From contig NC_135176.1 of assembly GCF_041146795.1 (NCBI RefSeq), positions 12,954,286-13,018,285 of the forward strand: a stretch of DNA of 64,000 nt. Direction: 5' to 3'. This document shows, piece after piece, positions 8,965 through 63,815 of this stretch. Position 1 is the first letter of the stretch. The number at the start of each line of letters is the position of its first letter. Under the pieces are notes generated by a model. It had not been told where the DNA came from, made no database searches, and saw only the letters and a program-made list of their open reading frames with translations. The DNA comes from Maylandia zebra (lineage: Eukaryota > Chordata > Actinopteri > Cichliformes > Cichlidae). Position numbers and translations under genes: made by a program.

Positions 8965-8990
8965 ATGACATTTTTGGTTTCATTTGCCAG
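8965..8990 (+). promoter_or_regulatory. Probable 5' UTR splice acceptor of grk1
   Basis: A T-rich tract ends in TTTGCCAG at 8983-8990, 14 bases before the grk1 ATG at 9005. It looks like a 3' splice site, so the true first exon and promoter would lie further upstream, probably beyond the Tc1 relic. Confidence 0.45.
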
Positions 8991-9004
8991 ACAAAGGTGT
9001 AGCC

Positions 9005-12078
<3,074 letters not shown>

Positions 12079-30929: not shown

Positions 30930-38276
<7,347 letters not shown>

Positions 38277-40738: not shown

Positions 40739-43700
40739 ATGTACAGAATTATATTTCGGACTTTGTTGGAGCCTCGAAGTTCTTCAGTCAATGTCTACGA
40801 CTCGTGTGTTTTAGCAGCTAAATGTGACAAGACGGTTTTCAGGTGAGGTAACCATGTGACTGTTAGCTGTGATTGAACGGGCCACACTGTGAAACAGAGT
40901 AACTAATGACCGTGAGACTCAGCTGCCGAGCTTCTTAATGTCAAAGAACAGGTTGCCACAGTACAAACGAAATATGCTGAGTTTTGCTTGTTTCGTTAAA
41001 CAAGAGTAGCATGTGGCTAGCAACTAGTTTATTCTAGCCTAAAGAGGGGGATGGACGTCTTGACTGACAGCTCTTCAGGCGGTTGTTTCCATGGTAATGT
41101 GTATGTGAAGTTAATCGCACGGACCTGAAAAAAAAAAGTTTGATTCACGTATAGATGCACAGACTAATATGTATATTATATAAGATATATGCAAAGCATC
41201 ACAAGTTGTCATGTTGTCTTTAAGCGGTATGCTTGTAAATGGTGTAGATTAAAACTGCATGGAATTGCATACAAATCTATAATGTATAATAATGTTATTT
41301 TTTCCAGACACTGTTTCCCCCTCCTTTGCATTTATTACGTTCAATATTGATGATATTGTGTTAATGTAATAATTATCAAAAGTCTGAATCGTGACCTTTT
41401 CAGATTTGGCTCCTTCTGATGCACAAATCTGTTTATCTCTCGACACAGGGTTACAAATAAATGTGGGGTAAAAACCTTCAGCACAAGTTCAAGCTCGCTC
41501 TGTGAAAAGAAGAATAACCAAGACCAGAAAACACAGGCAGTTAAAGAGGGTGACCAAGCGGAGGTGGTCGAATTGAAGGAGGAGCCAGCGGTGTTAAAGG
41601 CAGATGATGGAGACGCCACACAGCAGCAGACAGATGTTAAAACTGAACAGGCTGCATCAAAGCAGCCAGCGAAAACGAAGAATGATGCAGCTAAGAGTGG
41701 GAAGGAGAGTCTCCTGAATCTTCTTGGAGCCATGAAAGTAGAAGTCACCAACAAAAGGAAGCTCAAAAACCTGAAGGCAAAGCAAAGTTATGAGTCTGTT
41801 ACACAATATAAGCCGAAGGCGGCACCTATGGAGAGCACCATCAGTATGTATCAGAAGGCTACAGGGGATGATTCATCACAGAGGTGAGAGAAGTTGGAGA
41901 AGGGTTGTATTGCCTTATTGAAGTTTTTTGTGTTATTCACACCATTGGCCAATAAAGTTGTAAGATGACAACAGCAGTCACTCCACATGATTCTCTTTCA
42001 AGTTTATTTCATCTATAGTTACTTACATCACATGGAAAGTACTGGGCTACCTAGATGTTAGACCTACACAAGCTGCTCAACTATGGAAACCTATGCCTAG
42101 TGATGGGCAGATGAAGCCCCATGAAGCACTGAAGCTTTTCATCCAATTGGTTCACCCCAATGCGAAGCTTCATGAAGCTTCATTTGCTCTAGCAGGACAC
42201 CTACTGGACGTAAAAATAATAGCTGGCATGAATTTGAAGAGTGTGGCATTTTGCACACAGCCTGTAAATGTCAACAACAAAAGGAGTGTGTAAAACATGT
42301 ATATTGTAGTGATGCAGTATACTGTGTATATTTATAGTGGCAGTATGGAAAATGATTATTTGGAAATGCTTGAAATGGAAATGATCATTTACTGTGAGGT
42401 GAGGTGTGGTTGGGGTGTGGACAGTAGTTGTGCTTTTGTAACGTTGAGGTATGGACAGCTACACACTGAGGCTTTGAGCCTCAGTCCTGCCTGTTCACAT
42501 TTTATTCTGTAAAAACTAAATTTTCACTGCTTTTATGGCCTTTTTAGTGGGGAGAACATAGCTGGGATTTAATGATTTAACAAATCTTTTAAATCCTTTG
42601 TCCTCCACAATGCTAAATAGCTGTGAGTCCTCAATCACCATGCTGACCAGGTCTTCATCTATTTGAGATTGTTCTCCTGAGGAAAGACAATAAAGATAAA
42701 GCACAAATATAAATATCACACACGTAACTTATAACAGTTGTATAATATTGTTATATAATTTAGTAACATTACAGCATGCTATATTATCATTGCATTTGAT
42801 GGCTCACCTGGTCTTGCTCCACAATCGGTGTTCCCCTTATTCTCATGCAAAGCTCTGTAGTGCCTAAGCATGGATGAGGTGTTGTTATATCCCAGCTCCC
42901 TGGCACATAGCAAACACTTCACCTTGTACAAAAGTACAGACAGCTTAACATAAATTGTATTGCACCATCAGTATCATGAAAATACATCTTCTGTAGAAAT
43001 TTACATACCTTGTTGGGAGGAATAAGATCAAAATGTTCCCACACAGGGGAGGACATCCTCCTCTTCTTAGCTGGCTCCATTCTCTCCTGACTTTCTCTCC
43101 TCACTCTCATAAACCTCCAAACTGTCTCCAAACTCTCACTAACCGCAACTCTCCATCAAACACCCACATTTTGATTGAAGTCTGAGGGGTTTATATCTGT
43201 CATATCTCGCGGCAAAGATCGAACCACTTCATGAACCAGTCACGTGGTACAGCCGGGCAGCGAGGCTTCGGACGTCATCATTTTCAGCTCCTCCCATAAA
43301 TGAAGCAAGCCTCGATACGCGCTTCGCGGAAACGCCCCCTCCATTACTCGACACACGCTCCGAAGCCTCGATACAGAACGTCACATCACTACCTATGCCA
43401 TCCAGCACCCAGCACACAGTTTTTGTGCTGATTGTAATGGTTTAGTCTGTGCTATGCACTGTGCGCCTCAGTACTTGGTGACTCAGCTCATGGCTAAGTT
43501 GCTGTAGTTCCAAAATGTTTCTCCCTTGCAACAATACCACATACAGCTGAGTGTGGAATCTCTAGAAGGGAAGAAACTCCACTAATGTGACTTGTTGCAT
43601 ATTATTACAGCTACTTGATTTCAATGAACTCCTTAGAATGACTCATTCATTCACAAATGTTTGTAAAGGTATACTGCATGGATCAGTGGTTGATTGGAGA

Positions 43701-47061: not shown

Positions 47062-50000
47062 ATGGCTGAGTTACTGCCACAACAGCCGCAGCCGGGCGAT
47101 ATAGACCCGGACTTCGAGCCTCTCTCTCGCCCGCGGTCCTGCACCTGGCCGCTGCCCCGGCCGGAGCTCATCGACCCGGCCAGCTCCAACACATCCTCCC
47201 CAGCACCGTCTGTGCAGCAGGAGCCAGCAGCAAACGCCGAGTTCATCAGAAACCTCGACCTGGTGGAGGAGGACTATAAAGAATACTCAGAGCAGAAGCC
47301 GCTTTGCAATGCTTTTCAGTGCCGGGATAGCAACTGTGTGCATCATTACCCCCACCAACATCATCATCAACACCATCATCATCAGCTCCAACAGCAGCAC
47401 CAGGTCCCGGGTCCACAGCTGTCGTCCCAGCAACAGGTGCCAAATCCTGGGGTCCCACCTTTGGGTGGACCCGGGCAAAGGAAGAGCAGCTCGTCCCGGC
47501 GAAACGCCTGGGGGAACATGTCCTACGCAGACCTGATCACCAAAGCCATAGACAGCTCACCTGAGAAGCGGCTGACCCTTTCTCAGATTTACGACTGGAT
47601 GGTTAAGAGCGTGCCTTACTTCAAAGACAAAGGAGACAGCACCAGCTCCGCGGGCTGGAAGGTGAGTGTGTGCGTGCACGTGAACATTCGCTGTCAGTAG
47701 GATGTGTGCGCGTGAGCTGAGATGCATATATGCGCTGTAACCATCTTTACCACCACAGCACAGCAAGCAGCACCAATGAAAAAAGAGCCGCCAGCAGCAA
47801 AGCTGGACAAAATCATGATACCAAGAAAAGTTAGGGAGTGACATTTGAACGTGCTAGACTTTATATGCAGACAGTGGAAACTTGCATAAAACATATCAAG
47901 GCCACATCCTCATTAGCGTCTTATTGCACCGATTGCCACTGTAAGGCGTTTTGCACAATCTGCTGAGCAGGAAATGCAAAGGTTTGATGTGCAATTAATT
48001 GCCTTTGTAGTAAAAAAAAAAACAAAAACCCAGCCCTGTTTCACTCGCATTTAGAGACGTCGTGGCAGGATATTTACACCTTAAATTCTTAAACCTGTGA
48101 TTTTATTTTATCTAGAAAACTTGGTTTGCTTCAGGAAAGTGACAGTATTCACTTTCACTGTGTGCACATAGTGCAACGCATTTGGTTTAGTATATTCACT
48201 CAGCACTCACATTTGTGCTATGCAAAGCAACCCATCACATTTTTTAAATATGATTATAACTTTTAATTCAGGATTTATTAGCAGTTAAGTAATAACAGGA
48301 GTAACCCATTCCTTTTCTCTTTTAACACCATGGTGGGATTTCAAACCTGTCCGATGGTGGTTAGCTTTTAGAGGGGCTGCTGACTTCTGGCTTCTGAGTA
48401 ACCTTTGAAGTTTTGGAGTGGTTTCCTCTGTCAGTGGTAGCACATGCCTCTCTGCTTTGTCACTGAGGACACATGCAGCTCTAAAGCAGCAGAGGACAAA
48501 CCAGCTGGTCTGACTGTAAACATCCCATAGATGCCACCAAGACTGCTTTTCTCTATAAAAAGCAGAAACAAACTTCAGGTTTGTTTGAGAAAAACACCTG
48601 ACTGAGCGATGTGAAATTGGGTTTTGACTGAGGATAAAGATGTGTAGGTATGCTCTGTGGATTCCCCCACCCCCACCCGCAAACACACCTATGTGGGAGC
48701 CAACCTGTATTATCACAAAACACATTGACTTGCGCAGCATTTCCACAGTCATGGAAACCCTGCTACCTCCCTGAAAACTGCAATTTGAATGTGCAGACCT
48801 GGAAATATTAAGTACAGGGGACGAGCTGTGAAAACATTTGCCTAATGCCTGCACAAACATGCTGATCCGGCCAGTGAGGATGTCACTCCACTCGTGATGG
48901 ACAGAAGCCCGCAGACAAAGCCAAAGGTGGACCAACAGAAGACGCCAATTAAAGCCCGCACACGCCCAACAAAACGTATTCTGCTTGAGTTTTCAGTGTC
49001 GCAGCCTTTTCTGTAACCCCCTGCATTCTCTTGAGAGGTGATTTGAAAGTTGTCAGGAAATGCCTTTGGGAAACCTCAGTCATATATAGCTCCCATTGTT
49101 TTAACCCCCCACCACCACCCTACTTGAAAAGCTTTGTCACAGATTATTATATATACAGACTTTGTTAAACCTACTTCTTTTAAAAATCTGCACACTCTTG
49201 AATGTACAGGCACTGACGAATCGGCCTGTTTTTGTTTGAAATAACTGGAAGCTACATAAACAGCTCAATCAGTGCTGGGGAGTGTTTTCGAGGGGAAGGG
49301 ACTGGCAGAAGGGGATGCTGGGAACTACGTCAAACATCCTCCATTCCTGAGTTGTGTGCTCATATCTTTGTGTCCCTGTCTTCTAGAGTTTCCTTAGCGG
49401 ATGCTACGGCCTGGAGAAAGGGATCGCTGCTCTTCATCCTATCTCTTTCTTCTGCTCTCTCTCTCTCTCTTTGGGTTTCTGCTCACAGGGTTTGTGCTTG
49501 TTCAATAGGACCTTGAGATTTCTTTTACTAAAGGCCTTTGCTTTTTTTGTTTGGGGGGGGGGGGGTCTTTAAGACACAAATTCGGGAGATAAATAATTGT
49601 ATTGGTGCACTTTGGCTTTATGAAGAATGTCTTTCCCTTCCTTAGTCATAGAGATAAAGAGAAAGAACAAAGAGAAAGGTTCTGTTACCCTTCAGCGAGG
49701 CAGCGAACGCTTCTCAGTTCTCTATCAAGAGCAAAAGCTCATGATCATTCACATATTTTACGTATAATCAACACATCTTTGCTTCAGCCTCGCCATTCCT
49801 GAATGCTGGCATGCCCACCAGGCCTTGGAACTGCCGGCTTATAGTTATTTTTACACTTTCCTGTTAAAAAAACACGGCGGTTCCCCCACAATGAACTATG
49901 ATGCATTTCCTGCCCGGTGGATGGAAAACAGTGCCATGTGTTAACATCCCCACCCTGCAAAACATGAGGGTCAGGGCAGGGGGGAAAAAAGAGGATGAAT

Positions 50001-53000
50001 CAATAAGAGATCATATACACAGCATTTGTGTGAATCCAAGTCTATGCAAAATCACTTTTATATCATTTCAACATTTGTGCCACTTAAAAACGTAATTGCT
50101 GGTCTACTTGTTATGATTGTGCTTTTTGACATTTTTATTAACAAAGCAGTTTCGTCTCTTGCTGTAGTGATGCACAAAGATAAGCCAGGGATCTAATAGT
50201 GGGTGGAGGGCATTGCGCTTGATTGTAGCAGTACACCTAAAAAAGTATAGATAGGTGGAGCGCAGGGCAAGGGGAAAGGCACTGCCTCAGCAGCTTTCTG
50301 TCTACTGTATGTCATGGAGATTCTTTTGGTTTCCCCTCTAAATATTGTGTGGCAGCTCAGTGATCATGATGCCTTTGGGACAACAGAGGGCCCCTCCGTT
50401 AACTCGGGGAGGACTGGTTTCCCCTGGGATACTGGTGGGTCTGTGAGTAGCAGTGAACAGCTTGCAACGTACTTTTAGCGTTTTACTGGCAGTGCCACTG
50501 TTTTTCTCAATGAACTGTGACATTAGATAATGGAACAGGAAGTGACGCTCTTGAGTTTAACTGCCGCTGAAGTTCCGAGGTGTCACCCAAAAACATGTTG
50601 ATTACAAAAAAGCGTTTCCCCCCCTCCGTTTTTTGAAGTTTTTGAAAACATTGCCCTGCAAATGAAAGAATATTTCGTTGGGTTGCTTTGGTGATAGCCT
50701 GCAGAGTTGAGTCTAGTGACTGTCTCCTGTGAAGAGGTTTATCGCACTATGTTATCTAGCGCGGGGGTCAAAAGGTCACCAAGCCTACAGATCTGCAATG
50801 TGTTGATTTGCCTGTCTCACGCCTGATGTATGCATATGACCATTCTGGAAACCAGTGACAAACAAGACTGAAGGTTTCAGGATGAGCCAAATGGCACAGT
50901 GGTAAAGGTCATCGTCCCTCAACTTACAGCCGATAAGAGCCAATAGCGGGACTGGAGTGATGGCAAAACCCAAACCAAAGTTCTTGGCAGGTTTTGCGGT
51001 GACCCATACACTTGCTTGAGTGCTATAACAAGATTTGTTCGATTTGTTTCCCAGTTTGAGTAGTGAATCTCCTTTTTCCAGCTTCTGTGACTAGAACTGT
51101 CCTGAATGAAAAGCTAGAGCCACGTTAATTTAAGACATTTTTTTAGACATTATAAATTTAAATCTCTTCCCCACTGGCTTCAGTTTTTAACCAAGTTTGT
51201 AATATTCTCCATTAGTGGATCACATAGTAAGGCCACAAAAATGTCTGTGTAGTAAAACCTTTTTACATTTATTGTAGAGATTAAAACAAAAAGAAATGGA
51301 AATTTTCATCCAGAACAAACATTGGTTGGTTTTGTCCACGACAGAATCTACTGGATGGGTTGCTATGAGAGATTTGACTCTGTGAGTGATAACAGGAGGT
51401 TTACATTTGTGGTTTTGAGTGAAATGTTTATTGAACTATTGGATGGAAATGCTGTGGTCAGCGGGCATTCACAGTTCTGCAGTTAAGAAAAAACATCCCT
51501 GATGGCCCCAAATATTATTTCTTCATATACAAACATTAAAGATTAAAATGTTGCTAAACACTGAGATATGAAACCTGGAACTGCAAACAACATCCTTTGT
51601 AAGTGAAACTGAGTAGAAACTTTCACCTGCTGCTTAAAACAACCCAATACTGCTTTCATAGGAATCAGGAGGAAAAGTAGCAGCCAGGTTCTGATAATCA
51701 GTGAATTTGACTAACTGAGCATCAGCAACTGTGAGCACTTCTGTAAAAGCAGTTGCTCTGACAGTTTGCTATTTGCATTCAGGTGTTTATAGCATGTCAG
51801 GAGTGGACGTCCCAGCAAATTCACACCAAGATCAGACTGTGCAATGCTCAGAGAAATTGCTCAAAACCCAGAGCTACATCTCAGACTCTACAGGCCTCAG
51901 TTAGAATGTTAAATGTTAAAACTCTCGACAGAAAAAGCCTCTTCTCTGTAAAATGAAAATAGCAACATTCCTTAGTTTTGCAAAGTTGCATCTGATTAAA
52001 CCACAAGACTTTTGGAATAAAGTCCTTAGGACAGAGGAGACCAAAGTGGACATGTTTGGCCATAATGCAGTACCACATGTGGCAAAAACCAAACACAGCA
52101 TACCAGCACAAACACCTCATACGAACTGTCAAGCACGGTGGTGGAGGGGTGATGATTTGGACTAGTTTTGCAGCCACGGTGCCTAGGCACATTGTAGTCA
52201 TGAAGTTGACCACAAAGTTCTCTGTATACCAAGTATTCTGAGGTCAAACGTGAGGGTGTCTGTCTGACAGTGGGTTCTGAAACAGTACTATGATCCCAAG
52301 CACAGCGGCAAATCTACAATAGAGTGACTAAAGAAAAAAAGGTAAGAATCAAGATGTTGTAATGTCCCAGTTAAAGTCCAGACCTCAACCTGACTAACAT
52401 TCTGTGGTGAGATATTAATAGTGCTGTGCATAAACAAATGACCGCAAACCTGAAAGAACTGAAGCAACACTGTAAAGAAGAGTGAGCCAGAAATTCTCCA
52501 CAGTGAGGTGAGAAGACTGACAAAGTCATACAGAAATTTTTACTTCCAGTTATTGCTGCCAAAGCTGGTTCCACAATCTACTAATGTTTGTGGGGTGTAC
52601 TTAGTTTTACTTTCTTTTTCACATGACTCTATGTGGGCTGCACGAAAACAAACACAATCACAACAAGGAGCATTCACTGCATTAGATGCTAATGGATCAT
52701 CTAATTTATTAATCAACCTTTGTTTCATTGTTGCCTTGTGAACTTTGTTAAGGACACTGACCTGAAAACTGGTAGCAACTATTAAAAGAAGCAAGAGAGA
52801 GAAAAAAAGAGTAACTGCCAGCTATTTGTCTCGGGATCACAAGGTTAAAAAGGGATGTCTGCCTCAAACTTAAGAGGCCCACTAAAAGCTTCAAGTAACC
52901 CCATGAAGAAAAGGAGGCTTGAGGCAGGGGCTTTCAAAGAGGAACGGCCATAGCTTAAGGGAAGGAGGGGAGCAATCAGCTGACTGGTTTGCTGGGGGCT

Positions 53001-56000
53001 GAGGCCTGTGTACTGTCTGCTGTCTACATGTGTGAGCCGCTGGAATCTGTGGCATGTGGATCTTTAATCAGCTCCAAATATATTATGTTCACAAAATGTA
53101 CTTGGCCTCTAATCCATTATGCAAAATACAAAAGACGGGGTCAGAGGATGACAGAAATACATTTTTTTAAAAAGGTGACCTTTTCACCCGATGAAGTGTG
53201 CAAAGAATGCGGTTCATTCACAATAATAGGCTGAGATAGTTTTGTTATTTCTGAATATTCAAATATGATTGAAGTGCAGTGTTTGTGCTTAAATTATTGA
53301 ATTGCAGATCTCTCCATTCGTCTTCATGATGCCATTGCAGAAACAGGTCACTTCCTTTGATGCTCACTGTTAATTAAGTAGTCTGCATACTGTATGTGGA
53401 GCTGTAAAGAGTTGCACTCTCTGCACCAGGCTCGCATGCTCTTCTTCTTCTGCAGGCTTTCTCACCTTTTTGCCGCCTTGTTAAAGCAAACCCAGGCCCT
53501 ATGCTCACAGCTTTGTGCATCATAGGTCATAAGAGAAAGGGGGAGGGGTGCACAGGAAGGCAGCACAGGAAGACCGTAATCTCTGCAAGTGCTCGTTTTT
53601 CCTATTCTCTTATTTCTACCAGATAACTGCTTTGTAGTGGTAGTTACATGTTAGCAGAAAATCACTCCGATTTAGTCAAGTCTGGATTTTAATGTAAATT
53701 AAAGAAGCAGGGTGTTGGCCATGCTCATGAAGTCAAGCAGTATCAAATACATTTTCCAGTAACTTAACCTTTTAGCCTGTATTACCTAAAATCCTGCTTT
53801 GAAATTAAGTTTGACAGCAGTAAAATGGCTTTGCTGAGCTCTTTGTAGTCACTGGCAGCTACATAGATTAGCACACTTCCTAATTTCCCTGCTAATGTGA
53901 TCTTGATTAATAGACAATTGTTCTTCCAGTTTCCTCATTCTCTACAACTTTGTTTGAAAACCTTTTGGCAGACACAGCACAAGCACTTTGTTTGAGTGCA
54001 GCGGAATCTATCACTGAGGTCAGTAAAATGTTGAAATGTATGCCTTAAAAAGACAAAAACACGAGGTACACCTTATGCTGATCCCCTCCCTTTTGCCTTC
54101 AAGCTTTTTATAGAATAGATTTAACAAGCTGTTGAAAACATTTCTTTAGAGATTTTGGTTCATATTGACATGTCAGCATCACACAATTGCTGCACATCCA
54201 TAATGCGACACTCCCATCTTACCACAATTCAAAGGTGCTCCAGTGGATTGCTGTCTTGTGACTGTGTAGGTTATCTGAGAACAGCTGAGCTTCTGCTGGT
54301 ATAACCAGTGTTGGTCAAGTTACTTGAAAAAAGTAATCAGTAACTAATTAATTCAATTCAATTTTATTTATATAGCGCCAAATCACAACATAAGTCGCCT
54401 CAAGGCGCTTCATAGATACAGAGAAAAAAAACCCAACAATCATATGACCCCCTATGAGCAAGCACTTTGGCAACAGTGGGAAGGAAAAACTCCCTTTTAA
54501 CAGGAAGAAACCTCCGGCAGAACCAGGCTCAGGGAGGGGCGGCCATCTGCTGCGACCGGTTGGGGTGAGAGAAGGAAGACAGGATAAAAGACATGCTGTG
54601 GAAGAGAGACAGAGGTTAATAACAGATATGATTCAATGCAGAGAGGTCTATTAATGCATAGTGAGTGAGAAAGGTGACTGGAAAGGAAAAACTCAATGCA
54701 TCATGGGAATCCCCCGGCAGCCTATGTCTATTGCAGCATAACTAAGGGAGGATTCAGGGTCACCTGGTCCAGCCTTAACTATATGCTTTAGCAAAAAGGA
54801 AAGTTTTAAGCCTAATCTTAAAAGTAGAGATAGTGTCTGTCTCCCGAATCCAAACTGGAAGCTGGTTCCACAGAAGAGGGGCCTGAAAACTGAAGGCTCT
54901 GCCTCCCATTCTACTTTTAAATACTCTAGGAACAACAAGTAGGCCTGCAGAGCGAGAGCAAAGTGCTCTAATAGGGTGATATGGTACTACAAGGTCATTA
55001 AGATAAGATGGGGCCTGATTATTTAAGACCTTGTATGTGAGGAGCAGGATTTTGAATTCAATTCTGGATTTAACAGGAAGCCAATGAAGGGAAGCCAAAA
55101 CAGGAGAAATATGCTCTCTCTTTCTAGTCCTACTGATTACTTCCCCAAAAAAGTAATCCAGTTACTTTACTGATTACTTATTTTCAAAAGTAATAATTAC
55201 TTAGTTACGTGTTTTTTAAAAACACGATTTACAACCTGAATAGGTGATAAAGCGATAGATCTTTCAGCCCAATTCTACTTTTTCTACATAATCCATCATA
55301 CAAAATTTTAAAAGTTTTAATGTTGTTTATCTTAAATTCTGACCAAATCATCCAAAAACTGAGACACATCAGACCAGGCAATGTTTTTTCAATCTTCTGT
55401 TGTTCAATTTTGCTCAACCTCTATAACTACTCTATAACAACTATAGCTTCAGACTCCTGTTCTTAGCTGAAAGGAGTGGTTTCTGATGTGGTCTTCTGCT
55501 GCTATAGCCTGTCTTCTTCAAGGTTCACTGTTGTCCATTTAGAGATGCTGTTCTGCATACCTTGATTGTAGCGAAAAATCATTGGAGCTACTATTCCCTT
55601 TCGATCAGATCAAAGCAAGCTGGCCTTTTTTCTGCTGCTCAGTGAATATTTTCTCTTTCTCTGACCATTCTCTGTAAACCCAAGAAATGGTTGTGTGGGA
55701 AAATCCCAGCAGAGCAGCATTTTATAAATCACTTCGACCAGCCTGTCTCGTACAAACAGCCATACAATTTTACTAAATCACTTAAATCAGCTTTCTTCCC
55801 CATGCTCAGTTTAGACTCAGCTGGTCATCTTGACCATATCGACATCACTAAATGCATTGAGTTGTGGCCATTTGATTAGCTGCTTAGTCAGTCGCATTAA
55901 TGAGCAGTTGAACAGGTGTGACTAACAGCATTTATATTTGGTTGAATATATAAAAACAGTTGAATTTGTGAGCAACAAATTGCACCATTATTTACCCGGG

Positions 56001-59000
56001 CATTTTTGCAGCTTATCGTGGCTAGCGTTAGCGAATGTTAGCAAAGATTAGGACAGTACCTCTTGGCTCTCTTACTGGGAAATCAAGCAATCCAATGAGA
56101 AGGACTGAATAACTGTCAGCGATGAGCAAAAAACTGCACTATTTTCCATTTATAGGTTTTGCTGCTAACTGTGTAAAAGATAATGAAAAAATATAGCAGT
56201 GGCACAAATACAAACACAAATGCTTATCTACAGGGTTGCAATATCTAAAGGTTGAAAACCTAAGCTAACATTTAGCATCAAAAGTCACAGTACACTTTAA
56301 CTTTTAAAGCCTTCAAAGAAAAAAATTATATTTATATTTTCTCACGTTCTCCTGCCTGGGAAATTTACTGATGGGAAGACAAGGTCATTCTCCCTTCCCC
56401 CCTCCCCATCACTAACTACATGTAAGCTTTCATCATTGAGATAAAAACCAAGTTACTGATTTGAGAAGCAGCTGGTCTCCAGCAGTCAGCCTCCTGGGAG
56501 ATCCTCTGTCCTGTCTGTGGTTGTAGCTGGCGCTGTATGTAAAATGCATAGACCAATTGCAACTGAGGCCACTTTCACTGAGGCCGCACCTGTTCTTGCA
56601 ACCGAGCCCTGTTTGTTTACTTACCCTGCGACCGTTACTGCAAGCCTCATGCTTCACTACACAAGGAACAGCAGCTGCGTCAATTAGATTGTTTTGAAGT
56701 CCAGTAGGAGGAGTCATTTCATGCTGCATTATGGATGATGGTGATGGATGACTCTCCTTACTCCAGCTCAGGTGTTCTACCGGGTATCTCACCTGAGTTG
56801 TGGCAGGTGCTGTTTTCTCCTTTCATGTGGGAAGCCTAATGACCCATTTCTGAGGACGAACTGAAAGTAGATTTTGTCCCAACTCAGTCTTTCCTGATTT
56901 CAGGATTTCTTGCATAAGCTGTCTAATGTCTCTTCCGTGCTGCACCGGTTTGTTTCAGGGGCAGCACTACTAAATGTCCTCAAGTGTAGAGCAGAAAATG
57001 TTGCAGATTTCTTTGTAATACTCTTCTGCAGACTTGTGTGGCATCACTTCTCTAAGAGGATCTTTGCTCTTAAACATTTATGTTACTTAAGTTTCTCTTT
57101 AATCTGGACCTCGTCACTACCCTGGTTGCCAAAGCAGGTCAGCGGAGGAAAAAATAGATTTCTCATGAAATGTTTTGCAACCACAAAAGCACACATTTTA
57201 CTACTACAAAATATGCCGTAACACAACAGAAAAAAAAAAAGACTGGACCTTAGGCGGCTCTTTCAAAGAAATAATGATTGAGTGGGGCACCTCCTGAACT
57301 AAAAAGGAAGGGGAATTTTTGTTGTCTTTGAGTTGAGTTGAGGTTTGTCAAAGATAAGGCAGAGAAGAAAATTTCCCTTTCCACAGCACTGCCTTGCAGT
57401 GCACAATCTGTAGTAGGTGCTAATCAAAGGCTGTAGAGATTTGCATATCAACAGTGATCTCTGCCATGCGTGAGCGAGACTTCACATTTGGTTAGTGAAA
57501 TAAATGTTGGTTTGCAGGCTTGAGTCTGTGCAGCACACTGCTAAGATGTCCGGTCCTGTCTTTAGTTACAGGAGATCATTTAAAAAAAGGAAAATGGGGA
57601 GAAAAGGGTCATAAATCAAATGAGCATAAAATGCAATGATTGAATTGCATTTTGAAACCATACAACCTCAGGTCTCTTCAGTCTACATGTGCAGGATGTC
57701 CTCTGACACAGGAAGCCTCATTTAAAAGTCACTGGAGGAGAAGGGAGGAGTCTGGTTTTGGTGGTGGGGTGCAGTCCAAAGAAGCTGTTTTGGTGAGTCT
57801 CACGAAGCGGGTCTTACCCAGCGTGTCACATCTGATGATTCTCCTCCTCGCTCTTCCTTTGCCATCCAACCTGTTTGCATGTCCCCGTCAGCTCGTATGA
57901 GCAGCTCGTGTTTAGCACACAGTGAACTCATTGAGTTCACTCATTGAGTTCACTGCCGGCAATAACATCCTACAGTGTCGCCCTCCCCAACTTAGCTTCG
58001 AACTCTGTGACCTCCTCTTAGTTTCTGTTTAACAAAACAAAAAAAAAATCTAACTTGTGTACCACTCTCTGTTTTCACTCTGTCAGTTTACAGTTTGAGG
58101 TTGAACTCATCTTTCAGCACCTTCTTATGACGACGGCACAAAAAATAATACTTGAAAAGCGTCAAAGTTGTTCCAATTTTGCAGTTTTTTCTGGTTTTAT
58201 TCCTTGAATCTACTTTGATAATTTCCACTTTGAAATAATACTTTCACTGAGAGTAGTTTTATAGCTTAGAAGTCATATTCCTGCCAGAAGCTTAACTTTA
58301 ACCCCAAAATGTCAGAGACACACTGAGACAATCCATCTATTGTTTTGGATGAGAACATCTTTATCTCAGTGCTTTGTATATCCCTGCTGAATCCTGCGGT
58401 TGGGAACATCTGGGTTTACTAACTGCAGGGAGCTGCTTTCTTATTCACATGGGTGTTTAGGGGGAAATTCCATACTTGCACGTATTGTGTTACACTTTAG
58501 TCTTTCATTGTCCCCCCCCATCAAGCTCAGCAAGTTGCATATTAGTGTCACAGAAAGACCAGTCTGTACAGTGTGTCTGTGCCATGTCTAACTGTCTTCA
58601 TGACCTCCCGACCGACACTGGTTTTCTTCCTGAGAGCATTACCACAGGAGGAGTCTACTGCATCCTTTTTGGGATACATAACATGGCATTAAAAATCTAC
58701 TGAATAAGGCTTTAGGTGTGTGCATATTTGGACGAGGACAAATTTGACCACATACAAAAAAAGAGAGCAGCTCAGTGATCTCAATGAGCTCTTTCAGAGG
58801 TGTAATTTTCGATGATGGGCACAGGCAAGATTAAGCAGTGATGGTTTTTTTTCTGTAACGTGTCTTCCAAATTACCCTGTTTTTTGTTGTTGTTTTTCTC
58901 CTTGTATTTTCACTGTTGTTTTTCACTTTGGATCCAAAGCGAACGGTGTTGTTGTTGCTGCTGCTGGGCTGCGCTGATTAAAGTCAGTGGAAATCACAGG

Positions 59001-60930
59001 AAACATGATTATAGTCCGCAGTGAGGAAAGATGGACACCCTAGTAAGCTCTCTCGTGGGCCTTCAAAACAATACAAGCAGTTAAAGCATGAGAAAAACTG
59101 ATGAATACAACGTAAAAGTCAGAATGTATTCAGAAAACAGGAAAAATGTAAGGAAAAAAAAAAAAAGCAGACCGAGTGAAGAAACTAACGAGAAATGTTT
59201 CTTTGGTCAAATTTTGCACTATTATACTATAGTGTAATATGAATTGTCATCTATCTTTGTCACACTTGTGTCCAACATTTATCACCGCTTCCCTCTTTCA
59301 TTGAATAGGTCCTGTATTTCTGGAGAAAAGAGTCTCTTAAGTTATGTTGCTGACGATACTTTATTTTGTTCAGTATCATATTCAGTGACAGGCACTGATT
59401 TATTAAACTGACCATGATATTTGTGTGAGGGAAAACTTACAAATGAATCACTTTTCTCCCATTCAGAACTCCATCAGACACAACCTGTCCCTGCACAGTC
59501 GCTTTGTGCGCATACAGAACGAGGGAACAGGAAAAAGCTCCTGGTGGATGCTGAACCCAGAGGGAGGAAAGAATGGAAAGTCACCTCGACGCAGAGCTAC
59601 CTCCATGGACAACAGCAATAAGTTTGTCAAGAGTAGAGGAAGAGCCGCAAAGAAAAAGGTCTCTGCTCCTGAACTGAACCTTCATAGATATTTCAGCCAA
59701 ATGTTTGTTTTTTTAAATTCTGTTGAATCTAGATTACATGTACTCAGTGTTCTTGTGTTCTACTATCTCTAGATGGCTCTACAGGAAGGGCTTGAAGGAG
59801 GAGCAGGCAGCCCCAGTTCCCAGTACTCTACCTGGCTTGGAAGTCCAAACTCCCACAGCAACGAAGATTTTGACAACTGGAAAACCTTTAGGACGCGTAC
59901 CAGCTCTGATGCCAGTACTCTGAGTGGTCGCCGTTCACCTTTCCCTTCTGAACAGGATGATGTGGGCGAGTCCGATGGCCACATAATGTATCCTGGAGTT
60001 GCTGGTGCTAAGATAACCTCTACCCTGCCCAGCCTGTCTGAGGTGTCTGGATCCATGGGCCAGCATCGCTCAGAAAAGGTCATGGATCTGCTGGATAACC
60101 TTAACTTGCTGTCTCCTAAACCCTCCCAGCTCAGCTCTGACTCCTCACACTCCCCGCGCTCCTCAAACGCCGGCATGCTTCAGAGTAGCCCCTATAACTC
60201 CACTGGACTGACCCCACACCAGCAGCAAGACTACCAGAAGTGCTTGTATAGTCAGGTGAGAATGCACTCCCTGTCCCCTGCTCCTATGCAGACACTTCCA
60301 GAGACTAAGCCCAGCTTTGGGGCTTACGAGAACCAGTATATCTTCCCTTCTGGGCTGCTGACAGGAGAACCAGACACCAGAAGGGACATGATGCACTCTG
60401 AAGTTGGGAGGGCAAGTTGTCCAATACCTACTTATAGCAGCCAAAGCCATGTGGGTAGTCATAATGGAGTAAAAATGATGAATCCCTCTCAGAGTCACCC
60501 ACTTCCTCGTGTAAATCCACATACTCTGCATAGCCAGGGTCCAGCTGCCTCACAAGACTTGAATAGCTGTAACATGATACGCCTGACTAGCCATTCAGGG
60601 CCCTCTCTTCGAATGGCTGGTCCAAGGACGTGCATGCAGCTCCCCCTCGGACTCCCTCCACACACTAATGATGCCTCAGTGACCTACGGCAGCAGCAACA
60701 GCTACAGAGAACTCAACTCTGTACACCCACACAGTCATCATCATCAAGAGCACCTACCCAGTGATCTGGACAGTGTGCCTACTGAAAGGTTTGAATGTGA
60801 CTTGGAGTCCGTCCTCCATGACACACTCATGGATGGTGGGGGGCTGGACTTTAATTTTGATCCAGCAGCTGGGCCTCATGGGTTTTCCCAGAGGGTGAAG
60901 ACGACCACACACAACTGGGTGTCAGGGTAG
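47062..60930 (+). CDS. foxo1: Forkhead box protein O1 (FoxO1), 3 coding exons
   Basis: Forkhead transcription factor controlled by insulin/Akt signalling. Coding exons: 47062-47661, 59467-59658 and 59773-60930, 649 residues (human 655). All three Akt sites are present: RPRSCTW (Thr at about 28), RRRATSMDN (Ser at about 246) and RTRTSS (Ser at about 309). A His/Gln-rich stretch lies at about 94-120. The forkhead domain (about 148-247) has [32 protein letters not shown] and [14 protein letters not shown]; intron 1 (11.8 kb) cuts it at GWK|NSIRH as in other FOXO genes. A basic GRAAKKK signal follows. The C-terminal part has DLLDNLNLL and LDFNFD and ends [10 protein letters not shown]. The 114-bp intron after KKK is unexpected: human FOXO1 encodes this part in one exon. 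Teleost a/b paralog not assigned. Confidence 0.95.
51770..52780 (+). mobile_element. Tc1-like transposon relic in foxo1 intron 1
   Basis: A plus-strand reading shows scattered Tc1 transposase landmarks: [29 protein letters not shown], a version of [11 protein letters not shown] and, further on, YYDPKHSG. The frame changes and stops are many, so it is a dead copy with approximate ends. Confidence 0.65.
54310..54349. repeat. Left piece of an interspersed repeat broken by a LINE
   Basis: The phrase 'tacttgaaaaaagtaatcag' followed by 'taactaa' belongs to a common fish repeat rich in AGTAATCAGTAACT-type words. The same theme resumes at about 55125 ('ctactgattacttcccc'), so the LINE at 54350-55124 was inserted into it. 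Class not assigned. Confidence 0.5.
54350..55124 (-). mobile_element. Non-LTR (L2/Rex-type) LINE 3' end
   Basis: The minus strand reads [19 protein letters not shown], then [20 protein letters not shown] and later [19 protein letters not shown] with [10 protein letters not shown], the end of a reverse transcriptase related to but different from those at 2590 and 31955. A long 3' UTR follows and ends in 'ggcgctatataaataaaatt' and 'gaattgaatt' repeats at about 54350. It is 5'-truncated, and the retained 107-codon C-terminal frame is open. Confidence 0.75.
55125..56120. repeat. Continuation of the interrupted interspersed repeat
   Basis: Begins with the GTAATC/GATTAC-rich end continued from 54349, then AT-rich sequence. 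The far end is uncertain. No intact open frame. Confidence 0.35.
59659..59772 (+). other. foxo1: Unexpected 114-bp foxo1 intron
   Basis: Lies between AAAAAG|GTCTCT and CTATCTCTAG|ATG, phase 0. The acceptor with its T-rich tract is good, but the donor GTCTCT is weak. The stretch is a multiple of three and stays open for 37 codons until its last three bases (TAG). Joining the flanks gives [15 protein letters not shown], which aligns with human KKKASLQSGQEGAG, so removal is needed for the full protein. Confidence 0.75.
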
Positions 60931-60942
60931 CATCGCAGAGAG

Positions 60943-61068
60943 GTGAGACTGATCATTAGTCTGCCCTTAATTTCTTATACATATTACATTTTATTACAGA
61001 TAACAAACATAAACACCCTCAGAGTGTTTGTCATCCCTGAACATTTTCCATTTCATTCACCCCCGCAG
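60943..61068 (+). other. Possible 3' UTR intron of foxo1
   Basis: Twelve bases after the stop codon there is a donor AGAG|GTGAGA (60943), and at 61068 a pyrimidine-rich acceptor CACCCCCGCAG. A last intron just behind the stop would fit the human FOXO1 layout with a wholly untranslated last exon. Confidence 0.55.
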
Positions 61069-62859: not shown

Positions 62860-63815
62860 AAAATTGTTGCAGACCTACATTTTAGTAGTTGACGAATCTG
62901 CAAATTTTATTTTTTTTGATTAGTCAGCAATTATTTCAATAACTCTCAACTTCACTTCAAGTCTGCCCACCCTGTTGCCTCTACCCAAAGAAAATGAAAG
63001 TAATGACACAGAAAACATATGAATATGATAATAATCCAATTTATTTTTAACATTACTCAGTAGGACAGAATAAAAATGAAGTAAATAAAAATAAAGCAAT
63101 ACAAATTAAAGTGCTAGTAGTATTTAAACAAACAAACAAAAAAAAACAATGCGCAAACTAAAAACGTCTCTCCGTAAGTTCAAATAAAGCTTCAAATTAA
63201 ATCAAAAAGATTTTATTTTCCAGTCCAAAATAACATCTAGAAGAGGTTTACTATTCGAAATAAACGCTAATATTAATGTTAAAGAAAAAAGGGAGAGTGT
63301 TGCTACTCCAGTTTAATGTTTTTACCATCGTATTTCACTCATTAGCTAACACAACTGAAATGGTGTTTGCTTAGCAAGCATCTTCCATGAGAAATTTCCG
63401 ACAGGCAAGCTAACACAAACATTAACATAAACATAAACGAGGTATCAACGCGACGCACTAACGTAACTCTCTAAAACTGACCCGTTCAGAGTTAACGTCA
63501 CCGCACCAGGGTGCTGACGGACATGCTCTTGTGCTGCAGTAGTGCTGTCGTGAAAGGTTTTGCACAGTCTGCAATTAACTTTCACATTTTTTTGCATTTT
63601 CTCCCCTCTTCCCCACGCCAGCTGTTTTACTTTTCGCGCTACGTTCTTCTTCGTTAGTACTAAATGCCGTATTGGCAGCCCATATAGGCGACACTGCCCC
63701 CATAGCTTCCTATAGTGTATTGCAGTTGCAAAAACATATTTACGTGGTTCTAGAATATGACCGTCGACGAATTTTTAAAGTCGATGTTATCGATTATGTC
63801 ATCGTTGTAGCCCCA
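62860..63815 (-). mobile_element. Decayed hAT element with a BED-finger relic
   Basis: Both ends show the 'attagtcgac' type theme of fish hAT elements ('tagtagttgacgaatctgc' on the left, 'gacgaatttttaaagtcgat' and 'atcgttgtagcccca' on the right). On the minus strand near 63500-63600 the sequence reads VNCRLCKTFHDSTTAAQEHV, then RQHPGA, a BED-type zinc finger. No long frame remains, no clean target duplication was found, and the borders are approximate. Confidence 0.55.

What the first reader, a model, noticed from the sequence alone, without database searches (positions are those of the whole stretch)
59659..59772. A 114-bp in-frame mini-intron in foxo1 that could make a truncated FoxO1
The sequence shows a stretch between KKK and MALQEG that must be removed for full-length FoxO1. 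Human FOXO1 has no intron at this place. The donor GTCTCT is weak, the length is a multiple of three, and the frame stays open for 37 codons until the TAG made by the acceptor itself. If the intron is retained, the product would keep the forkhead domain, the first two Akt sites and the basic nuclear signal but lose the whole activation region. Such a protein could act as a natural competitor. Either a lineage-specific intron gain or a regulated retained intron would be notable.
Basis: partly seen in the sequence, partly recalled or inferred. Interest (0 to 1): 0.72.

Follow-up and report, generated by a model that had tools for sequence, protein, structure and literature searches.

The report
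Old fish-specific intron in foxo1
The 114-base stretch looks like a real small intron of a fish foxo1 gene that its sister copy carries at the same place, so it is old rather than new; nothing here shows that it makes a shortened FoxO1 protein, although its unusually weak start signal makes occasional failure to remove it plausible.

Summary
In detail: window 59659-59772 is a 114-bp GT...AG phase-0 intron between AAKKK and MALQEG of a fish foxo1. It is open for 37 codons and closes on its own TAG. Its donor (AAG|GTCTCT) is the weakest of nine FoxO coding donors compared in this genome.

It is not a recent, gene-specific gain. The sister foxo1 (C14) has a 374-bp intron at the same codon boundary and phase, with an ordinary donor. 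The five other FoxO genes found read straight through. Simplest history: one gain in the FOXO1 lineage before the two copies separated, probably before the teleost genome duplication, then donor decay in this copy.

The truncated-competitor idea is unproven and disfavoured. The open frame is ordinary (7.2% of shuffles), and the sister intron gives a similar 39-codon tail. A predicted 3'UTR intron 12 nt after the normal stop would put the retained stop 1170 nt upstream of a junction, so such mRNA should be destroyed. No transcript data were available. The weak donor in only one of two sister genes is the interesting remainder: it predicts copy-specific leakage.

The parts
47062..47661 (+). foxo1 coding exon 1 (MAELLPQQ...SSAGWK), 600 bp, donor AAG|GTGAGT
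47662..59466 (+). intron 1, at the FoxO position inside the forkhead domain
   Evidence: donor score 8.30, acceptor 6.06; same junction (TGGAAG| and |AA(C/T)TC) in the other six FoxO genes of this genome
59467..59658 (+). coding exon 2 (NSIRHN...RGRAAKKK), 192 bp: rest of forkhead domain, second Akt motif, basic stretch
59659..59772 (+). 114-bp phase-0 mini-intron, donor AAG|GTCTCT (weak), acceptor TATCTCTAG|A, in-frame TAG at 59770-59772
   Evidence: same position in sister gene C14:32310737-32311110
59773..60930 (+). coding exon 3 (MALQEG...[11 protein letters not shown] and stop): third Akt motif, KIX-binding and transactivation regions
60943..61068 (+). candidate 126-bp 3'UTR intron (AGAG|GTGAGA ... 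CCCCGCAG|GT), 12 nt after the stop; predicted, not shown
   Evidence: donor 5.83, acceptor 5.86; weaker acceptors also at 60999 (4.27) and 61107 (3.97) (coordinates checked). A splice site near the stop is in print for sea urchin FoxO

Best explanation
The stretch is an ordinary spliceosomal intron at the AAKKK boundary of the fish foxo1 genes. It was gained once in the FOXO1 lineage before the two foxo1 copies of this genome separated (inferred: before the teleost genome duplication). In the window copy it is now 114 bp long and its donor has drifted to a weak form. It is spliced out to give full-length FoxO1. When splicing fails, the TAG at its acceptor stops translation about 1.2 kb upstream of a 3'UTR exon junction, so the faulty mRNA is expected to go to nonsense-mediated decay rather than make a stable protein. 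Shown: intron signals, protein continuity, same position and phase in the sister gene, absence from five other FoxO genes, weak donor. Inferred: splicing itself, single gain and its date, use of the 3'UTR intron, decay.
For: Protein runs on across the junction and resembles FoxO relatives there (KKK-MALQ, KKK-LSLQ, KKK-AALQ, KKK-ASLQ in four of seven genes; the foxo6- and foxo4-like genes differ). GC drop, GT-AG, acceptor better than 97.9% of 4117 AGs in the window. Sister gene C14 split at the same codon. Five of five other FoxO genes uninterrupted. C10 and C14 group apart from the other five with 100% support in a 7-gene tree. In print, rohu FOXO1 has 4 exons against 3 in human and a zebrafish foxo1a morpholino was aimed at an intron 2-exon 3 site; both fit a shared teleost intron but give no position. 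Stop-to-junction distances 1170 nt (retained) and 12 nt (normal).
Against: No transcript was available. The donor is poor at +3 to +5, and no strict yUnAy branch site lies within 60 nt of the acceptor, while the sister intron has three. The acceptor (4.60) scores below the sister's (6.12) and all seven intron-1 acceptors (6.06 to 11.45). Three of 91 in-frame GT/AG pairs score above this one, one with the same donor and a stronger acceptor in exon 3. The two introns share no sequence, so common origin rests on position alone; independent gain at one site is reported for slc26 genes (PMC12357937). The 3'UTR intron is predicted; near-stop donors scoring above 2 were found in 4 of 7 FoxO genes, one overlapping the stop (the sister foxo1) and one 73 bases on. 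Rohu FOXO3 is also given 4 exons, so that count is weak support.
Confidence: 0.82

Rival explanations
1. Regulated retained intron: in some tissue or state the weak-donor intron is kept, the mRNA escapes decay, and a 301-aa FoxO1 with forkhead domain, two Akt motifs and basic stretch but no activation region competes with full-length FoxO proteins.
For: Donor -2.56 against 4.51 to 8.30 for eight other FoxO coding donors; frame open to a clean stop; [quoted passage not shown]
Against: Candidate 3'UTR intron predicts decay. Open frame seen in 7.2% of shuffles. The sister intron's tail is unrelated. RNA fold no better than shuffles, z 0.13. Paper search found nothing; one search listed 10 of 185 papers and I saw only that listing, none of it titled on such an isoform.
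Confidence: 0.1
2. Leaky splicing as a dosage brake: the weak donor makes a share of window-copy transcripts unproductive, so retention coupled to decay lowers FoxO1 output from this copy compared with its sister.
For: Weak donor seen in the faster-evolving copy only (tree branch 0.58 against 0.24; donors -2.56 and 4.56); retained stop 1170 nt upstream of a predicted junction; weak introns relying on decay as back-up are described in Drosophila (PMC2809761, passages).
Against: No expression data; short introns can be removed well despite weak donors (recalled).
Confidence: 0.25
3. Two independent insertions at the same site after the two foxo1 copies separated, one per copy.
For: No sequence similarity between the 114-bp and 374-bp introns; convergence of intron sites is reported in slc26 genes.
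Against: Same codon boundary and phase, and absent from five other FoxO genes; intron sequence is not expected to stay alignable over such time.
Confidence: 0.08
4. The stretch is not spliced; the window copy is a broken gene with an insertion.
For: In-frame TAG if unspliced; weak donor.
Against: 385 codons downstream stay open with KIX-binding and activation domains; sister gene has an intron at the same place.
Confidence: 0.03

Closest known systems
[quoted passage not shown] abstract, introduction and discussion read)
   Same: Fish-lineage introns inside coding regions that have fewer introns in tetrapods
   Different: Those arose in Eurypterygii or later, in genes kept as one copy after the teleost duplication; the foxo1 intron sits in both sister copies, so it looks older
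delta256Foxo1 laboratory competitor (PMC3072380; passages)
   Same: Lacks the C-terminal activation domain, keeps two Akt sites
   Different: An engineered protein; no natural fish product has been shown
Sea urchin FoxO retained-intron isoform (PMC11353378; passages)
   Same: FoxO gene with a splice site near the stop and a retained-intron transcript
   Different: That intron lies at the end of the coding region and both isoforms code for the same protein
Weak new introns backed by nonsense-mediated decay in Drosophila (PMC2809761; passages)
   Same: Weak splice sites plus an in-frame stop in the intron
   Different: Here the intron appears old; its donor is weak in only one of two copies

Membership tests
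U2-type spliceosomal intron | GT...AG ends and pyrimidine-rich acceptor | tested here: met
   GTCTCT...CTATCTCTAG, acceptor above 97.9% of 4117 window AGs (recalled matrix), though below the other eight FoxO acceptors scored
U2-type spliceosomal intron | Donor near consensus at +3 to +6 | tested here: not met
   C, T, C at +3 to +5, score -2.56; eight other FoxO coding donors 4.51 to 8.30. Usual rather than essential for splicing (recalled)
U2-type spliceosomal intron | Branch site upstream of acceptor | tested here: inconclusive
   no strict yUnAy within 60 nt; vertebrate branch sites are loose (recalled)
U2-type spliceosomal intron | Interrupts a conserved reading frame that is continuous when it is removed | tested here: met
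U2-type spliceosomal intron | Spliced transcript | not testable with these tools
   no transcript data held
Recent, gene-specific intron gain | Absent from the closest paralogue | tested here: not met
   C14 foxo1 has an intron at the same codon and phase
FOXO1-lineage intron gain | Absent from other FoxO genes | tested here: met
   5 of 5 other FoxO genes found are uninterrupted
FOXO1-lineage intron gain | Distribution across gar, zebrafish, medaka and other fish | not testable with these tools
   says that the genome has no relatives here
Natural dominant-negative FoxO1 isoform | Keeps DNA-binding domain, loses activation domain | tested here: met
   301-aa conceptual product; Pfam domain positions
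Natural dominant-negative FoxO1 isoform | Stable, translated retained-intron mRNA | not testable with these tools
   layout predicts decay

The most novel reading that the evidence does not exclude
After the two foxo1 copies separated, one let the donor of a shared old intron decay, creating a copy-specific retention switch: under some condition the intron is kept and either lowers FoxO1 output through decay or, where decay is weak, yields a 301-aa natural counterpart of delta256Foxo1. The ATG that directly follows the retained TAG (TAG-ATG) could even allow a second product with the activation region but no DNA-binding domain.
Probability: 0.1. Interest if true: 0.6.

Novelty: new member of a known kind. 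Interest (0 to 1): 0.27.

Why it matters
It corrects the picture of a new mini-intron: both foxo1 copies of this fish share an intron that human FOXO1, in print, lacks, a possible marker for dating gene-structure change around the teleost duplication. The contrast between a weak donor here and a normal donor in the sister gene is a natural pair for testing whether splice-site decay splits the output of duplicated FoxO1 genes.

Tried and rejected
Alternative junctions: of 91 in-frame, stop-free GT/AG pairs of at least 65 bp, the proposed pair ranks fourth by summed score. All three ahead use the stronger acceptor that ends at 59955 and so lose the first 61 residues of exon 3; one has the same donor (59659), one starts inside the mini-intron, and one also deletes forkhead residues. 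The proposed pair is the highest that keeps both exon 2 and the LQ...FPSEQ stretch. The 59955 acceptor could be an alternative one; the matching place in the sister gene reads GAG.

RNA structure at 59640-59800: no better than shuffles. Repeats in 59400-60000: only short pairs. Rfam at gathering score and ARAGORN on the window: none. Mobile-element origin: apart from self-matches, no hit better than E 0.09 for the mini-intron or 0.33 for the sister intron in the window and L010-L037; the whole-genome search for it did not complete. Viral contigs: 21 pattern matches, no relative. Synteny at the sister gene: in the 30 kb held (L010, L016, L017) only foxo1-region ORFs of the window matched. grk1 paralogue search did not complete. 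Papers: no paper holds foxo1, intron gain and fish together; searches were seen as listings, with passages or sections of nine papers. A DNA pattern search used a faulty pattern and tells nothing. The FoxO type names of the other genes rest on reading their sequences, not on a search.

Full report
The sequence. On the + strand the window holds a fish foxo1 gene: coding exon 1 at 47062-47661, intron 1 to 59466, exon 2 at 59467-59658, the stretch in question at 59659-59772, and coding exon 3 at 59773-60930. The stretch is 114 bp, begins GTCTCT, ends CTCTAG, has 34% GC against 50% and 53% around it, and lies between AAKKK and MALQEG in phase 0. Spliced, the gene encodes 650 aa with Forkhead (E 2.9e-25), FOXO_KIX_bdg and FOXO-TAD; the five best solved-structure matches are FOXO1 DNA-binding domains. 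Unspliced, it encodes 301 aa ending at the TAG of the acceptor. RxRxx[S/T] motifs end at residues 28, 246 and 309, so the short form would keep the first two.

Is the open frame special? No. In 5000 dinucleotide shuffles of the first 111 bases, 7.2% stay open in frame; the sister intron also stays open, for 39 codons (3.7% of shuffles), with an unrelated tail.

Relatives in the same genome. The window's genome (962 Mb, 63 contigs) was searched once with success. Nine matches came from seven FoxO genes. Two are foxo1: the window gene on C10 and a sister on C14. Both are split at the same point. The sister reads GCAAAGAAAAAG|gtaact ... tcccctcag|CTGTCCCTGCAG, a 374-bp intron at C14:32310737-32311110, same codon boundary, phase 0. 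The other five genes (C15 and C19, C21 and C11, C2; by reading their proteins foxo3-, foxo6- and foxo4-like) run straight through. In a tree of the seven, C10 and C14 group apart from the rest with 100% support, and the C10 branch is longer (0.58 against 0.24). Two foxo1, two foxo3, two foxo6 and one foxo4 match the clades named in PMC12283898 (FoxO1a/1b, 3a/3b, 4, 6a/6b; passages), so I take C10 and C14 as sister copies of the teleost duplication; this is an inference, and synteny could not confirm it.

Age. One gain in the FOXO1 lineage before that duplication explains the pattern with one event. Print fits but does not prove it: human FOXO1 has 3 exons, 2 coding (PMC10611805, passages); sea urchin FoxO has 2 coding exons with the first junction at the same GGAAG site (PMC11353378, passages); rohu FOXO1 has 4 exons, but so does rohu FOXO3, and positions are not given (PMC12370200, passages and section 2.3); a zebrafish foxo1a morpholino targeted an intron 2-exon 3 site, described as exon-skipping in the text and as giving a larger product in the legend (PMC4602192, passages). 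The two introns share no sequence. Convergent gain is possible, as reported for slc26 genes (PMC12357937), but less likely. High intron turnover in teleosts (PMC12357937) and a tendency to short introns there (PMC11649378, passages) are on record, so neither the gain nor the 114-bp length is strange.

The splice sites. With a recalled vertebrate matrix (GT itself not scored) the mini-intron donor scores -2.56. Seven FoxO intron-1 donors of this genome score 8.30, 4.56, 7.08, 6.74, 4.51, 7.08 and 7.20, and the sister intron's donor 4.56. It is lowest of nine. It exceeds 73% of 3569 GTs in the window, which is unremarkable. The acceptor scores 4.60, above 97.9% of 4117 window AGs, but below 6.12 in the sister and 6.06 to 11.45 for the seven intron-1 acceptors. 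No strict yUnAy branch site was found within 60 nt of the acceptor; the sister has three. A stronger in-frame acceptor (6.46) lies 183 bp into exon 3, and three of 91 frame-keeping pairs, all using it, outscore the proposed one; they would drop 61 residues that the paralogues partly conserve. Splicing of this copy may therefore be less efficient or more variable than that of its sister.

Fate of a retained transcript. A candidate 126-bp 3'UTR intron (60943-61068) starts 12 nt after the normal stop (AGAG|GTGAGA, score 5.83). Of the seven FoxO genes, donors scoring above 2 near the stop were found in four: this one at +13, one foxo3-like gene at +20, the other at +73, and the sister foxo1 with one overlapping its stop; three have none. 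If it is used, the normal stop is too close to the junction to trigger decay, while the retained stop lies 1170 nt upstream and should trigger it (exon-junction rule, established knowledge). This speaks against a stable truncated protein, and fits the model in which in-frame stops back up weak introns (PMC2809761, passages). The truncated product would resemble the laboratory competitor delta256Foxo1 (PMC3072380, passages), so the idea is sensible, but there is no evidence that it is made.

Verdict. An ordinary, old fish foxo1 intron, read from sequence and from its sister gene rather than from transcripts. The unusual part is the weak donor in one of two sister genes. Transcript data would settle the rest.

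Noticed in passing
window 59955/59956: A stronger in-frame acceptor (score 6.46 against 4.60) lies 183 bp inside exon 3 (GAACAG|GATGATG). Using it with the same donor would drop 61 residues including the third Akt motif; the matching place in the sister gene reads GAG.
   Followed up: partly
window 59770-59775: The retained-intron stop is followed directly by an in-frame ATG (TAGATG) that opens exon 3; the sister gene has CTG there.
   Followed up: no
window 8969-12075 and 41420-41884: Upstream neighbours look like grk1 (Pfam RGS domain; name recalled) and mrps31 (name recalled, no Pfam match), fitting a FOXO1-MRPS31 neighbourhood known in human (recalled).
   Followed up: partly
window 54778-55161 (-) and 31895-32242 (+): ORFs that share a HWLP-like stretch resembling the tail of a LINE reverse transcriptase, judged by eye.
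   Followed up: no
window 63448-63774 (-): 109-aa ORF that looks by eye like a BED-type zinc finger of a hAT element; no Pfam match at 0.001.
   Followed up: partly
L010:8291-8300: In the sister foxo1 the only near-stop donor scoring above 2 (TCAG|GTTAGA) overlaps the stop codon, so its 3'UTR intron may be lost or changed.
   Followed up: no
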